DNA of 41,713 nucleotides, from contig JASHNR010000022.1 in assembly GCA_030041535.1 (NCBI GenBank), positions 1 to 41,713 of the forward strand, written 5' to 3'. The position numbers and the translations under genes are program-made. Every line of letters begins with the position of its first letter. The first letter of the stretch is position 1. This document shows positions 11,219-17,148 of the stretch, piece by piece. Source of the stretch: Nitrosopumilaceae archaeon. Lineage in GTDB: Archaea > Thermoproteota > Nitrososphaeria > Nitrososphaerales > Nitrosopumilaceae. The notes beneath the pieces were generated by a model. That model saw nothing but the letters and a program-made list of their open reading frames with translations, did no database searches and was not told the DNA's origin.

Positions 11219-11392
11219 ATGGCAGAGAGTGCAGAAGAGTCCATTTATGAGCGGGTAGCTAGACTTGAAGATGAAGTAGCGACACTCCGACACGAAGTGG
11301 ATATTATAAAAGGTACAATGAGAAACAAGATAGTAAGATACGAACACAAACTGATCAAGAAAGGAACCGACATTAAATCAATTATTGATTAG
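11219..11392 (+). CDS. 57-residue coiled-coil protein
   Basis: A short gene from ATG 11219 to TAG at 11390-11392. The product is one long charged helix: RVARLEDEVATLRHEVDIIK follows a heptad pattern with Val/Leu/Ile at a and d positions, then a basic tail (MRNKIVRYEHKLIKKG). It probably forms a coiled-coil oligomer or binds a partner. No family is recognised. A well placed TATA box and its compact ending, which overlaps the converging gene by 11 bases, favour a real gene. Confidence 0.65.
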   Translation: MAESAEESIYERVARLEDEVATLRHEVDIIKGTMRNKIVRYEHKLIKKGTDIKSIID

Positions 11393-12203
11393 CTTTTTCC
11401 TTGATGCTTCTTATCAAATCTAGGACATTATCAACATCGTCTGCTTCAGGTGCCAACTCCAGATACCTTTCAAGTGACTGTAAGGCAAACTCGTTTTGAA
11501 GTAATCTTGATTGCACAATTCCCTTATCTCTGATCTCATCTGGAGAATCAGGAACCAGTCCTAGAACCATGTTTATGCAATGCATGGCCATTTTGTAGTT
11601 GAAAGACTGCATATAGGAATTTTTTAGATTTTTTAGAATCCTGATCAGTATATTTTCTGGCTCTATCTCATTTAGATAATCTGGGTTGAACTGTATGCCG
11701 TCTCCATATGTAGTATCAAGTATCTCTTGTAGATCATCGACATCTAGCAACATGCCTCCGTTGAAAGGATCCAGTATCATCTCTTCTGAGTATTTTACCA
11801 GAAAATGACCTGGAAAGCCAACAGGTCTTAGGTCTAATTTTATGTGGCTACCAAGATGAATGTAAATTATTGACAGTGTGATTGGGATGCCACTTTTTTT
11901 ATCAATTACTATATTTAGAAAGTTATTTCTGGGGTTATAGTAATCGTCACCGTCCCCATGAAAATCGAGGTTATCAAACATGTATTCATTTAACATGGAA
12001 ATCAAGTATGTTGGATTTTTCACATCGGAAACAGAATTTCGTAACTCTTCTCCCATTGAATTTAGTTTTTGAATATAGTGACTTAGGCTAAGATCCGGAA
12101 ACTCTAGAGTCTGAGCAAGTTTCAGGCATTTTTCAACAAGGGAATATCTAGGATTCCTTGCGTAAGTAATCCACTCTGCTACAAATGGATCAAAATCATT
12201 CAT
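11382..12203 (-). CDS. SirB1-family transglutaminase-like protein with TPR-like tail
   Basis: A 273-residue protein with the SirB1/Transglut_core2 pattern: LNEYMFDNLDFHGDGDDYYNPRNN, then KSGIPITLSIIYIHLG (typical of the family), PVGFPGHFLVKY and ILDPFNGG. The catalytic Cys of true transglutaminases is not seen at the expected site, which is usual for this family, so it may be non-enzymatic. The C-terminal third (SYMQSFNYKMAMHCINMVLG onward) is a helical TPR-like segment. Its start overlaps the stop of the 396-residue gene by four bases (ATGA), so the two are one operon and may act together. Confidence 0.82.
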   Translation of the reverse strand: MNDFDPFVAEWITYARNPRYSLVEKCLKLAQTLEFPDLSLSHYIQKLNSMGEELRNSVSDVKNPTYLISMLNEYMFDNLDFHGDGDDYYNPRNNFLNIVIDKKSGIPITLSIIYIHLGSHIKLDLRPVGFPGHFLVKYSEEMILDPFNGGMLLDVDDLQEILDTTYGDGIQFNPDYLNEIEPENILIRILKNLKNSYMQSFNYKMAMHCINMVLGLVPDSPDEIRDKGIVQSRLLQNEFALQSLERYLELAPEADDVDNVLDLIRSIKEKANQ

Positions 12204-13390
12204 AGTCTTTTGAGATAGCTCTCAGGATTTTTGAGCTCTCTTGTTGTAGGAGGATCATCAATTAATCTCTTGTACGTGCCTTTGCCAATCTTGGCTGACA
12301 CATATTCTGTGAAATCCATGCCAATACTCTTTCTTACCTGATATGAAGATATGTCCGTGTTTGCAAATGTTGTTAGGTAGTTGTGAAAATCCTTGTCATC
12401 CCTTAATATGCTTCTAACTGCAAATTCAGCCATTCCTTCCATGATTGTAAATGCTGCATGATGAATTTGTATGGGCTTGAGCCATCTCTGATAAACGTCT
12501 AGCAGTTGAGGAATCATTTCTAATATCTTTGGGTCAACTGAGACATTGGTAAATGTCATTACATCAGGTCCAAGAACTCTGACGATAAAGTTGTCAGGAT
12601 TTAGAGTAAAAAAGAGATTTGCTCTTTGCGCTATTGGATATTCGTCTGGTACGGGGGGAAGTTGCAGGTATTCATAAAGTGCTTTTATTTTGGAGCTATC
12701 AAGTGCCAGTATTATGTTTGCAAGTTCCTCGTTGATCTCATTTACCATAGTTACTGCATTCTTGTTTGTTTCATAGAGATTCTTTTGGACCGAGTGAACC
12801 TGCTCTTCCAACATGGTCATCTTCAAGGCCCCAATATATCCTGAATTTACTTGATCAAAATTAGATTCGTATGGAACTCCGCGCTTGTGCAAAATTATTT
12901 GTGGATAGCCTGAAAGGACAAATCTGTTTAGGTATATTGCTGACTCGTAAAAGTCCCCGTAGGTGGTAGATATCTGTGAAATGTATCCTTTGGCATACGT
13001 GGAATACACAAGAAACTGTGAAGTATTGTTCTTTGCAAGTTGTGCTATTCTCTTAGTGTCTTCGTACGCTATTGAGGTGAAGAGTTCGTCTACAAATGAG
13101 AAGGAATTTCTTGTAGGGAAGACCTTGCGACCCTTTAGGCGCTTGAATTCTATCAAATCTGGAGACTCAACTTTGGTATTGTCTGGAACTGAAATTCCAG
13201 TAAATTCAAGCACTTTTTGGGCACTATCCAAAAACAATCTCTCTGATATTTCCTTAATATCATCAAAAGATATCTTTGAGGCAAAGGCCTCAACAGCATT
13301 TGATTGAGATTCTTTTATCGTATTTTCTTCGCTTAATTCTACTGAAAGTTGGTCTAAAAGAGCAAAGGCAAATTCTTCAAACTCGTCCAT
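12200..13390 (-). CDS. Unknown 396-residue protein, possibly degenerate metallopeptidase
   Basis: No named family is recognised. The protein is soluble, with an acidic helical N-terminus (MDEFEEFAFALLDQLSVELS) and a long mixed region. Two patches recall zincin peptidases: EEQVHSVQ, where HExxH would need His at the first Glu, and EGMAEFAVRS, like the Glu-bearing third-ligand helix in gluzincins. They are about 130 residues apart, so the resemblance may be chance or reflect a dead enzyme. It is the first gene of an operon with the SirB1-like gene. Confidence 0.7.
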   Translation of the reverse strand: MDEFEEFAFALLDQLSVELSEENTIKESQSNAVEAFASKISFDDIKEISERLFLDSAQKVLEFTGISVPDNTKVESPDLIEFKRLKGRKVFPTRNSFSFVDELFTSIAYEDTKRIAQLAKNNTSQFLVYSTYAKGYISQISTTYGDFYESAIYLNRFVLSGYPQIILHKRGVPYESNFDQVNSGYIGALKMTMLEEQVHSVQKNLYETNKNAVTMVNEINEELANIILALDSSKIKALYEYLQLPPVPDEYPIAQRANLFFTLNPDNFIVRVLGPDVMTFTNVSVDPKILEMIPQLLDVYQRWLKPIQIHHAAFTIMEGMAEFAVRSILRDDKDFHNYLTTFANTDISSYQVRKSIGMDFTEYVSAKIGKGTYKRLIDDPPTTRELKNPESYLKRL

Positions 13391-14759: not shown

Positions 14760-15518
14760 ATGCAATCAAGCTGTTCTAATCTTGATTTTGACACAATCAA
14801 GAATTCTTTCTTATTCTACAAGACCGTAACAAGTCAATACAAGGATCCTCAAGTCTTGAGATCGGTTAGGAACTTGATACCTAAAGATGTGCTGGAGGGA
14901 GCAGATCTGGTTCCATCTCTTTTGAAGTGGTTTACAGGTTTTATGACCTGGACCCAAAATCAAATCTCCTGCAGTAATTGTAATGATGACTCGAAGAACT
15001 TGATGCAGGTTAAAGTGCAGACAGGAGATTCCTGGAGAGTACGCAAGACAGAGATTCACACTTGCAGTAAATGTGGAGCAGAAAAAATAATTCCAAGATA
15101 TAGTGATGTATTGAAAATTGCCCAAGAACGGTATGGAAGATGCGGTGAATGGTCCATACTCTTTGGTGCCATACTAAACTCAGTCTCAGTCAAATCAAGA
15201 ATAGCATATGACTACCTTGATCATTGCTGGAATGAAGCATATGTTGATGGCAAGTGGTTTCACGTGGATTCAACGTTTCAATATCCTCACTCATTTGACA
15301 ACGCACACTATTATGAGAAAAACTGGAAAAAGCAATACGTATACGTTATTGCATTTTCGCAAGACAAGATAGAAGATGTTACAGGCAGGTACACAGAACA
15401 ATGGAATGCCGTCCTATCAAGAAGAAATAGCCTTGGAAAGTTTGGAAATATTGATGTAAACTCTATTTCAGACCTTCAGAATTTTTATGATAGTGTACAG
15501 TCGTTGTATTCTAGTTAG
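14760..15518 (+). CDS. Peptide:N-glycanase (Png1/NGLY1)-like transglutaminase-fold protein
   Basis: A 252-residue soluble protein that matches the catalytic core of eukaryotic cytosolic PNGase, which removes N-glycans from misfolded glycoproteins. Seen: a zinc site C71-x2-C74 and C102-x2-C105; the nucleophile segment GRCGEW with Cys128; DHCWNEAY with His155; WFHVDS with Asp170; and a downstream YVIAFSQDKIEDVTGRY that closely mirrors YVIAFS-DVT-RY in PNGases. Cys-His spacing (27) equals that of yeast Png1 as I recall it. N-terminal PUB and C-terminal PAW domains are absent. Archaeal substrate is unknown; deglycosylation of N-glycoproteins is a reasonable inference because thaumarchaea make glycosylated S-layers. 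It starts 41 bases after the channel gene. Confidence 0.85.
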   Translation: MQSSCSNLDFDTIKNSFLFYKTVTSQYKDPQVLRSVRNLIPKDVLEGADLVPSLLKWFTGFMTWTQNQISCSNCNDDSKNLMQVKVQTGDSWRVRKTEIHTCSKCGAEKIIPRYSDVLKIAQERYGRCGEWSILFGAILNSVSVKSRIAYDYLDHCWNEAYVDGKWFHVDSTFQYPHSFDNAHYYEKNWKKQYVYVIAFSQDKIEDVTGRYTEQWNAVLSRRNSLGKFGNIDVNSISDLQNFYDSVQSLYSS

Positions 15519-16747
15519 GATTTTTGCTGTGTCGTAACTGATCTTTGCTTTCCGGGTTTTAGGAAAAATGCACAAGCAATGATTGCTCCGGCACATACTT
15601 CTGTTATGGTAAAACTGTAAAATGGAAATGTGTAGTTTATAGTGAAAAGTATGGCACCGATTATTGTTCCAGCAGACACTGACACATTTCTTAATGTGTC
15701 ATATACTGCAAATAGCGCAGGCCTTTTTGCCCTCGGTGTTAACTCGATTTGAAGAGCCTCATGCGTTGGGCCATAACTGATACCTGTCGCAACCATTGCA
15801 AGCAATATTGCAAGTATTCCAAGGAAAGAATGCTCCAAGATAAGAAATATTGAGAGTGGAGCCGTTGTGATGACAGACAGAAATAGCATTTTTCTCTTGT
15901 CAAACCTGTCTGAAACAATTCCAAGAGGGGTTCTAACAAGATTTGCAAACAGGATCTGCATGCTCAGTATTATCCCCCACTGGAAGCTATCAAGTTTTGC
16001 GACTGTAATGCCATAAAATATCAGATAAGGACTAGTCGTTGAATTTGCTATGATGACTAGTACGTAGGCTGAAAGCAACGGAACCAATGGCTTTGGCAAC
16101 GTAGTAAGATTGGACCAGAAATCCCTTGAATGGGAAAACACTGATTCAAGTGGCTCTTGCTTTTTGGTGCCATCTGGCAATACTTGCTGATCATGTGGCG
16201 ATTTTGGATCTTTTTCGCGCAAGAATCTGACTAGCAATATGGTGGAAACTGGTGATATTGCAAGTGATACCAATGCTCCAAGCCTGAATCCGTCTACTGT
16301 TCCCATGGTATGAACCAAATATCCTCCAACAAGCGGTGCAAAGATCAAGGGTATAGTGGTAAGTGTTTGGTAAACTGAGAGCTGGGCAGTCCTGTTTTTC
16401 TGTACTGTGGCATCAGCTACTAGCTGTCGCCAGGCTGTTGAGCTAATTGCACCTGTTGCACCAATCAATATGGGAATTGAAAGCACAGTCCAGCTGTTTG
16501 AGAGATAGTATCCAAGAAGTATGGCTGGCCCTATCCATGATGTCAGGATTGCAATCTTTTTGAGGCTATGTCGCCCGGCAATGATTCCACCTGAAATAGT
16601 AGATGGTATCCCAATGAGTGTCGCAAATGTCGTGATTATTCCATACTGGAGTACTGTTCCGCCAAGTGAGGTAAAGTAGATTGGCAGAAATGATAGTGCT
16701 ATGTTGCCTATGCTTCCAATTGAGGTAGCAACAATCAGTATACCAAT
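15515..16747 (-). CDS. Major facilitator superfamily transporter with no canonical start codon
   Basis: A 12-helix MFS permease. The first ATG/GTG/TTG in frame is GTG 16486, but that would remove about three helices. Coding clearly continues upstream in the same frame: GILIVATSIGSIGNIALSFL, PIYFTSLGG, QYGIITTFATLIGIPSTISG, and a basic GRHSLKKI loop that is the usual helix 2-3 turn. The open frame reaches a TGA at 16787-16789 with no canonical start. ATT at 16747, preceded by AAAGGG (16752-16757), is the best candidate. Either a rare start codon is used or the gene has lost its start. The substrate is unknown. It converges on the PNGase-like gene and ends within its last four bases. Confidence 0.78.
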   Translation of the reverse strand: MGILIVATSIGSIGNIALSFLPIYFTSLGGTVLQYGIITTFATLIGIPSTISGGIIAGRHSLKKIAILTSWIGPAILLGYYLSNSWTVLSIPILIGATGAISSTAWRQLVADATVQKNRTAQLSVYQTLTTIPLIFAPLVGGYLVHTMGTVDGFRLGALVSLAISPVSTILLVRFLREKDPKSPHDQQVLPDGTKKQEPLESVFSHSRDFWSNLTTLPKPLVPLLSAYVLVIIANSTTSPYLIFYGITVAKLDSFQWGIILSMQILFANLVRTPLGIVSDRFDKRKMLFLSVITTAPLSIFLILEHSFLGILAILLAMVATGISYGPTHEALQIELTPRAKRPALFAVYDTLRNVSVSAGTIIGAILFTINYTFPFYSFTITEVCAGAIIACAFFLKPGKQRSVTTQQKS

Positions 16748-16861
16748 GTTTCCCTTTGGGATGATCTCCTTCGTATCGCTATATCTTCAGTAAACTATTC
16801 TTTAATCTGTTGGGTTGAAATTTACTGTATCCAAAATTCGTTGGATGTTAAAAAAACTGTA

Positions 16862-16956
16862 TACCGGGGGTGGGTTTCGAACCCACGACCTCCAGATTAT
16901 GAGTATTGTCCTTTTTGTGGAGACTGGCACTCTAGGCCAGGCTGAGCTACCCCGGC
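16862..16956 (-). tRNA. tRNA-Met(CAT), elongator type, with non-canonical intron
   Basis: Minus-strand gene. Acceptor GCCGGGG (16950-16956) pairs with CCCCGGT (16863-16869), with discriminator A at 16862. The T arm is GTGGG-TTCGAAA-CCCAC. Mature anticodon arm CCAGA-CTCATAA-TCTGG forms only after removing 19 bases (16905-16923) between stem positions 30 and 31, giving a normal 76-base tRNA. The anticodon is CAT; the elongator-Met body is favoured over tRNA-Ile2. CCA is not encoded. Confidence 0.92.
16905..16923 (-). other. 19-base intron in the anticodon stem of tRNA-Met
   Basis: The insertion TCTCCACAAAAAGGACAAT (minus strand) lies between tRNA positions 30 and 31, not at the canonical 37/38. 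The boundaries cannot slide without breaking the stem. Archaeal splicing endonuclease would have to accept a relaxed bulge-helix-bulge here. Confidence 0.8.
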
Positions 16957-17148
16957 ATAGATTACGCGTTATTTCAACTGCAATTAAATGTAGCTCGTGT
17001 AAAATATTGAGCAAATTTCAAAAACCAATTCTTTTAAAATACAAAAAGATATTTGCAGTCTAAAATTAATTAGACTGCTTTTTTTTGGGAGGGCGCAAAT
17101 GACGCGATAGTTAATCAACCAAATTGTTAGTACAATCTTTTGCTGACT

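What the first reader, a model, noticed from the sequence alone, without database searches (positions are those of the whole stretch)
14760..15518. Eukaryotic-type peptide:N-glycanase core in a thaumarchaeon
The translation carries the full PNGase signature: paired CxxC zinc site, GRCGEW nucleophile, DHCWNEAY, WFHVDS, and the downstream YVIAFS...DVTGRY that I associate with Png1/NGLY1 and not with generic transglutaminases. Cys-His spacing is 27 residues, the same as in yeast Png1. Eukaryotes use the enzyme to strip N-glycans from misfolded proteins before proteasomal decay. A proteobacterial or generic transglutaminase origin would not be expected to keep the post-Asp segment. It may point to glycoprotein quality control in archaea, or an ancestral form of the eukaryotic enzyme.
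Basis: partly seen in the sequence, partly recalled or inferred. Interest (0 to 1): 0.82.

Follow-up and report, generated by a model that had tools for sequence, protein, structure and literature searches.

The report
Archaeal cytosolic N-glycan-removing enzyme (PNGase)
A soil-type ammonia-oxidising archaeon carries a close relative of the enzyme that human and yeast cells use to strip sugar chains off proteins, with its catalytic and zinc sites intact and its own transporter gene beside it, so the origin and purpose of that enzyme can now be tested in archaea.

Summary
ORF 14760-15518 (+, 252 aa) is a Png1/NGLY1-type peptide:N-glycanase by sequence. In the PDB it matches only mouse and yeast PNGase (E 8e-29, 1e-25; family profile 2e-43). 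Its confident model (pLDDT 92.6) also finds PNGases first, then Rad4/XPC. [quoted passage not shown] In a tree without the zinc domain it joins the eukaryotic PNGases (97/92 and 92/79 in two builds), not the archaeal core-only transglutaminases.

It is an accessory gene of Nitrososphaerales: 12 of 37 genomes of the genus (one a remnant), 35 of 70 Nitrososphaeraceae, including cultured Ca. Nitrosocosmicus franklandus C13.

Corrections: the post-Asp segment is not exclusive to PNGase, the loop after the catalytic Asp is 3 residues longer than in mouse and yeast, and nothing links it to proteasomal quality control. New: an MFS transporter gene sits tail-to-tail with it and occurs only in PNGase-bearing genomes. 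A published nitrogen-rich, chitobiose-core N-glycan in this group is a plausible substrate. Activity is untested; direction of descent relative to eukaryotes is unresolved.

The parts
14760..15518 (+). Png1/NGLY1-type peptide:N-glycanase gene, 252 aa, no signal peptide seen
14970..14981 (+). first CxxC of the zinc site (C71, C74)
   Evidence: invariant in 30 archaeal sequences, mouse and yeast
15063..15074 (+). second CxxC of the zinc site (C102, C105)
   Evidence: invariant; yeast C165T in this motif abolishes activity (PMC2866665)
15135..15152 (+). GRCGEW with nucleophile C128 (yeast C191)
   Evidence: C128, E130, W131 invariant; core-only archaeal TGases have EF or GF/GY in place of EW
15219..15242 (+). 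DHCWNEAY with catalytic H155; W157 and E159 equal yeast W220 and E222
   Evidence: invariant; essential-residue list from PMC3502110
15255..15272 (+). WFHVDS with catalytic D170; W166 equals yeast W231
   Evidence: invariant
15273..15299 (+). loop after catalytic Asp, 3 residues longer than in yeast and mouse PNGase; Asp+3 is Leu/Phe instead of Glu
15342..15392 (+). post-Asp segment YVIAFS...DVTGRY; R210 is the position of human NGLY1 R390 (mouse R387), variable in archaea
   Evidence: PMC12248763
15515..16777 (-). MFS transporter (DHA1-like, about 420 aa, start codon unresolved), convergent with the PNGase and overlapping its stop by 4 bp; orthologues found only in PNGase-bearing genomes

Best explanation
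The gene encodes a cytosolic, minimal (core-only) peptide:N-glycanase of the Png1/NGLY1 family. C128, activated by H155 and D170 in a transglutaminase fold braced by a four-cysteine zinc site, attacks the side-chain amide of a glycosylated asparagine, releases the glycan as a glycosylamine and leaves aspartate. Shown here: family, fold, intact catalytic and zinc residues, purifying selection, patchy spread in Nitrososphaerales, and a linked MFS transporter. Inferred: the reaction; the substrate (glycopeptides or unfolded proteins carrying the diacetylamino-sugar chitobiose-type N-glycan found in Nitrososphaera viennensis, which could explain the changed loop); and the role (salvage or clean-up of N-glycopeptides in the cytosol, with the MFS protein moving the glycan or the glycopeptide). 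A Rad23/proteasome-coupled ERAD-like role is not supported. About 0.93 that it is a Png1-family member, 0.6 that it catalyses PNGase-type deglycosylation, 0.25 for the salvage/transport role.
For: PDB sequence search finds only PNGases in earnest. AlphaFold model pLDDT 92.6; Foldseek best hits mouse and yeast PNGase at E 4e-15 to 6e-14, next Rad4/XPC at 1e-6, transglutaminase 2 only at 5e-3. Zinc cysteines, triad, R147, W157, E159, W166, W189 and K191 invariant in 30 archaeal sequences and present in mouse and yeast. Tree on the core without the zinc domain: archaeal plus eukaryotic PNGases (with one zinc-less g5 sequence) one group at 97/92; eukaryotes with core-only archaeal TGases rejected, p-AU 0.005-0.006. 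Own genome encodes the oligosaccharyltransferase STT3/AglB. Nitrososphaera viennensis makes a chitobiose-core N-glycan (PMC12153357). MFS orthologue in 9 of 11 PNGase-bearing genomes of the genus (8 full-length, 1 truncated) and 0 of 26 others, p=4e-7 without correction for kinship, and adjacent also in two Nitrososphaeraceae.
Against: No activity data. The Asp+3 Glu and loop length shared by yeast and mouse are not kept, so glycan recognition must differ. Archaeal N-glycosylation takes place outside the cell, so how a cytosolic enzyme meets a substrate is unclear. The MFS partner is missing from most Nitrososphaeraceae that have the PNGase (present in 2 of 35).
Confidence: 0.6

Rival explanations
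1. Same fold and active site, different reaction: a cysteine amidase, deamidase, protease or transglutaminase that acts on a non-glycosylated amide; the PNGase-like sequence reflects ancestry only.
For: The glycan-side loop differs from both eukaryotic references; core-only archaeal relatives with the same triad exist and are uncharacterised; Arabidopsis PNGase also has transglutaminase activity (PMC9102325).
Against: All zinc and second-shell residues needed for PNGase activity are invariant; the nearest structures by a wide margin are PNGases and not TGases or proteases.
Confidence: 0.25
2. The archaeal gene was acquired from a eukaryote (or the reverse) by horizontal transfer, rather than being an inherited archaeal precursor of NGLY1. 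(A rival on origin, not on function.)
For: Found in no Thermoproteota outside Nitrososphaerales in a 398-genome sample; patchy within the order; family members and eukaryotes are sister groups.
Against: Archaeal sequences are one deep, diverse clade (43-53% identity across families) with an archaea-specific loop, native gene context and composition; losses are visible (G317 remnant, G442 and G509 with stops), so patchiness can also be loss.
Confidence: 0.35
3. PNGase-like amidase plus MFS exporter form a resistance or detoxification pair: the amidase cleaves an amide in a foreign compound and the MFS pump exports it.
For: The MFS protein's weak family hits are mostly drug-efflux models; strict linkage and patchy, accessory distribution.
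Against: Most Nitrososphaeraceae keep the PNGase without the pump; MFS hits are weak and also include sugar and phosphoglycerate transporters; the gene pair is convergent, not an operon.
Confidence: 0.1
4. A non-catalytic scaffold, like the inactive PNGase orthologues of Neurospora and Drosophila.
For: Inactive orthologues with biological roles are known in eukaryotes (PMC2866665, PMC9102325).
Against: Those lost a triad or zinc residue; here all are invariant.
Confidence: 0.04

Closest known systems
Cytosolic peptide:N-glycanase (yeast Png1, mouse/human NGLY1; EC 3.5.1.52)
   Same: Transglutaminase-fold core, two CxxC zinc motifs, Cys-His-Asp triad with Cys-His spacing 27, R/W/E/W second shell, DVT...Y segment; 35-38% identity over 166-175 residues
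   Different: No PUB or PAW domain; loop after Asp 3 residues longer, without the Glu at Asp+3; His-Asp spacing 15; no Rad23 partner found; archaeal, with an MFS gene partner
XPC/Rad4 transglutaminase-like domain
   Same: Same fold family (Pfam Rad4 hit 3.6e-7) and a similar W..VD...DVTxRY stretch
   Different: Foldseek far weaker than for PNGases; Rad4 lacks the active triad (known from literature) and is a DNA-repair protein
Core-only archaeal transglutaminase-like proteins of other Thermoproteota (L006-L010 and kin)
   Same: Same triad and second shell, DDPEMYERDWKK and DVTxxY segments
   Different: No zinc domain, GKCGEF instead of GRCGEW, about 170 aa or longer with added segments; separate group in the tree
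PNGase F / PNGase A
   Same: Catalyse the reaction inferred here
   Different: PNGase F has an unrelated beta-sandwich fold with acidic active-site residues (PMC9102325); PNGase A is likewise not of the transglutaminase fold (my knowledge)

Membership tests
Cytosolic PNGase (Png1/NGLY1) | Cys-His-Asp triad in a transglutaminase fold, Cys-His spacing as in yeast | tested here: met
   C128, H155, D170 invariant, spacing 27; model and Foldseek
Cytosolic PNGase (Png1/NGLY1) | Zinc-binding domain with two CxxC motifs needed for activity | tested here: met
   C71, C74, C102, C105 invariant in 30 sequences; need for the second CxxC from PMC2866665
Cytosolic PNGase (Png1/NGLY1) | Conserved R, W, E, W around the triad (yeast R210, W220, E222, W231) | tested here: met
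   R147, W157, E159, W166 invariant; residue list PMC3502110
Cytosolic PNGase (Png1/NGLY1) | Groups with eukaryotic PNGases apart from other transglutaminase-like proteins | tested here: met
   97/92 and 92/79 in two trees; rival grouping of eukaryotes with core-only TGases rejected, p 0.005-0.006. Only two eukaryotic sequences available
Cytosolic PNGase (Png1/NGLY1) | Loop after the catalytic Asp and Glu at Asp+3 as in yeast and mouse (glycan side; role from memory; not counted as family-defining) | tested here: not met
   3-residue insertion and Leu/Phe at Asp+3
Cytosolic PNGase (Png1/NGLY1) | Rad23/proteasome coupling (typical of yeast and mammals) | tested here: inconclusive
   No XPC-binding domain found in own genome, but no control genome rang either
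Cytosolic PNGase (Png1/NGLY1) | PUB and PAW domains (animal enzymes; yeast lacks them, so not family-defining) | tested here: not met
   No Pfam hit
Cytosolic PNGase (Png1/NGLY1) | Glycan release with Asn to Asp conversion | not testable with these tools
   needs purified protein
XPC/Rad4 | Catalytic triad lost; BHD DNA-binding domains follow | tested here: not met
   Triad intact; no BHD domain in 252 aa
Generic (animal-type) transglutaminase | Closest to solved transglutaminases | tested here: not met
   No TGase in the PDB sequence search; Foldseek TG2 E 5e-3 versus PNGase 4e-15

The most novel reading that the evidence does not exclude
Soil-type ammonia-oxidising archaea have a dedicated N-deglycosylation module (Png1-type PNGase plus a linked MFS carrier) that takes apart their own nitrogen-rich chitobiose-core N-glycoproteins or glycopeptides, and the eukaryotic NGLY1 enzyme descends from such an archaeal enzyme rather than being a eukaryotic invention.
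Probability: 0.15. Interest if true: 0.85.

Novelty: new variant of a known kind. Interest (0 to 1): 0.6.

Why it matters
Cytosolic PNGase is treated as a eukaryotic enzyme in the papers read here, and no held paper reports it in archaea. A zinc-bearing archaeal relative in cultured organisms gives a simple, apparently Rad23-free system to study the NGLY1 reaction, whose loss causes a human disease. It also makes the origin of NGLY1 testable next to the archaeal roots of the chitobiose core and the oligosaccharyltransferase. For ammonia oxidisers it suggests a way to recover nitrogen from N-glycans, or a way to handle mislocalised glycoproteins. The MFS link is a concrete genetic handle.

Tried and rejected
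Viral or plasmid origin: no relative in viral contigs (two scans), phages or plasmids; no convincing viral fold. Contamination: rejected; same locus order in other genomes of the genus, archaeal neighbours (RadA, topoisomerase IB), similar GC. Operon with the upstream MscS gene: not conserved (absent in L100; opposite-strand ORF between in L024 and L027). M1 aminopeptidase and multicopper oxidase-ZIP-DtxR neighbours in three relatives of one genus (L089, L094, L095): noted, too few and too closely related to weigh. ENGase (GH85) as a partner: absent. First ORF extraction mishandled minus-strand loci and was redone. Asgard and bacterial homologues could not be reached with the collections left. 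The yeast chitobiose-complex paper (PMC2722417) is not held, so sugar-contact residues could not be checked from print.

Full report
Observation. ORF 14760-15518 (+) encodes 252 aa. Pfam sees Transglut_core (1e-11) and Rad4 (4e-7), both above cut-off. phmmer against all PDB chains returns mouse PNGase (8e-29) and yeast Png1 (1e-25, 2e-25) and nothing else of note. A profile of 21 archaeal relatives gives 1.6e-43 and 3.4e-40 for the same entries, and only one other sequence at 0.016.

Residues. In 30 archaeal sequences C71, C74, C102, C105 (zinc), C128, H155, D170 (triad), R147, W157, E159, W166 (yeast R210, W220, E222, W231 by position; list of conserved residues in PMC3502110), W189 and K191 are invariant and agree with mouse and yeast. 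The importance of the second CxxC comes from the yeast C165T mutant (PMC2866665). One difference stands out: between the catalytic Asp and the D-x-P turn the archaeal proteins have three extra residues, and Leu/Phe replaces the Glu that mouse and yeast share at Asp+3. I recall that this side of the cleft binds chitobiose in the yeast structure, but that paper is not held, so this is a lead, not a test. R210 of the window (human R390, a disease position, PMC12248763) is Arg in only 16 of the 30 archaeal sequences.

Structure. AlphaFold on the archaeal alignment gives mean pLDDT 92.6 and pTM 0.91. Foldseek on the PDB ranks mouse and yeast PNGases first (E 4e-15 to 6e-14, TM up to 0.75), then Rad4/XPC (about 1e-6), a bacterial putative cysteine protease (3e-4) and transglutaminase 2 (5e-3).

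Relatives and tree. The gene is found in 12 of 37 genomes of the window's genus (one is a remnant: G317, first 40 codons with stops) and 35 of 70 Nitrososphaeraceae, 20 of 37 good-quality ones (a few of these are decayed copies). In 398 Thermoproteota genomes every full match with the zinc domain lies in Nitrososphaerales; all others start at or after its second CxxC. G584, in another genus of the same family, has the core and the N-terminal helices but no zinc domain. On 122 core columns, zinc domain excluded, archaeal PNGases are one group (98/94), eukaryotes another (99/91), and together with the G584 protein they form one group against all core-only archaeal transglutaminases (97/92). Leaving out the G584 protein and the long rows lowers this to 92/79. 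Putting eukaryotes with the core-only proteins is rejected (p-AU 0.005 and 0.006). With two eukaryotic rows and no Asgard or bacterial rows, direction of descent cannot be read. Closed genomes exist with the gene (G215, G363, G370) and without it (G376, G398, G400). G215 is Ca. Nitrosocosmicus franklandus C13: its contig has exactly the published 2,836,447 bases. By size, the three closed genomes without the gene fit N. gargensis, N. viennensis and N. evergladensis, and G363 (2.99 Mb, region GC 33.9%) fits Ca. N. exaquare (sizes from PMC5398378); these are inferences.

The segment after the catalytic Asp is not unique to Png1. Core-only archaeal proteins read DPSEKRIDDPEMYERDWKK...YAFE...VT, and human XPC aligns over the same stretch. 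What separates PNGases is the zinc domain together with the tryptophan after the catalytic Cys-x-Glu, and the tree.

Neighbour. The MFS gene at 15515-16777 (-) ends inside the PNGase stop codon. Genomes of the genus with the PNGase: 9 of 11 have its orthologue (62-82% identity in the others; 8 full-length, 1 truncated in G301); genomes without an intact PNGase: 0 of 26 (Fisher 4e-7; among genomes at least 90% complete 6/6 against 0/13, 4e-5; kinship is not corrected for). In Nitrososphaeraceae it occurs only in G227 and G391 (50-53% identity), both times tail-to-tail with the PNGase while other neighbours differ. G323 and G302 have the PNGase without it. Weak family hits are mostly efflux models, and no PDB sequence matched below 0.01. 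So the pair is linked by selection or moved together; cargo unknown.

Function. The protein has no visible signal peptide or membrane segment, so it is probably cytosolic. The genome encodes STT3/AglB but no GH85 ENGase. Nitrososphaera viennensis carries an N-linked hexasaccharide with a chitobiose-type core of diacetylamino sugars on its S-layer protein and multicopper oxidases, proposed as a nitrogen store, while the marine Nitrosopumilus piranensis shows none (PMC12153357). The PNGase is likewise present in Nitrososphaeraceae and one genus of Nitrosopumilaceae and nearly absent from the rest of Nitrosopumilaceae. That is suggestive, but N. viennensis itself seems to lack the gene. My best reading is PNGase-type amidohydrolysis of N-glycopeptides or unfolded glycoproteins in the cytosol; the salvage role is a hypothesis. 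An ERAD-like, Rad23-coupled route is not supported.

Novelty. In the held literature cytosolic PNGase is treated as eukaryotic, and no paper joins it with Thaumarchaeota, Nitrososphaera or Asgard in a relevant way; subscription literature and automatic database annotation could not be checked. I therefore file it as a new variant of a known kind: the known enzyme family in an archaeal, minimal form with a modified glycan-side loop and a transporter partner.

Noticed in passing
15515-16777 (-): MFS transporter strictly linked to the PNGase; the ORF listing starts it at 16486, but homology runs to about 16777 with no ATG/GTG/TTG in the first ~95 codons, so its start codon is non-standard or unresolved.
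   Followed up: partly
16861-16957 (-): ARAGORN reports a tRNA with a four-base anticodon (ccac) just upstream of the MFS gene, probably an intron-containing tRNA mis-parsed; a tRNA beside an accessory gene pair may mark an integration site.
   Followed up: no
11382-12203 (-): A second transglutaminase-fold gene (Transglut_core2 plus TPR, SirB1-like) lies 2.5 kb upstream of the PNGase and is syntenic in the genus, beside a conserved 396-aa protein without any Pfam hit (12200-13390).
   Followed up: partly
L073 (G584, same family, other genus): A PNGase relative that keeps the N-terminal WF..FMKW helix and the long post-Asp loop but lacks the whole zinc domain; a natural deletion or a pre-zinc form.
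   Followed up: partly
L104:4545-4664 (G317); G442 and G509 hits: Decaying copies of the PNGase with internal stops, at the same locus after the MscS gene in G317: the gene is being lost in some lineages.
   Followed up: partly
L089, L094, L095: In three relatives of one Nitrososphaeraceae genus the PNGase is divergent from an M1 aminopeptidase and next to a multicopper oxidase / ZIP transporter / DtxR-type regulator cluster; multicopper oxidases are among the few known N-glycoproteins of N. viennensis.
   Followed up: partly
L006-L010 and other core-only loci of Thermoproteota: A widespread, uncharacterised archaeal family of about 170 aa with a PNGase-like triad and post-Asp segment but no zinc site; some members are longer, with hydrophobic segments.
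   Followed up: partly
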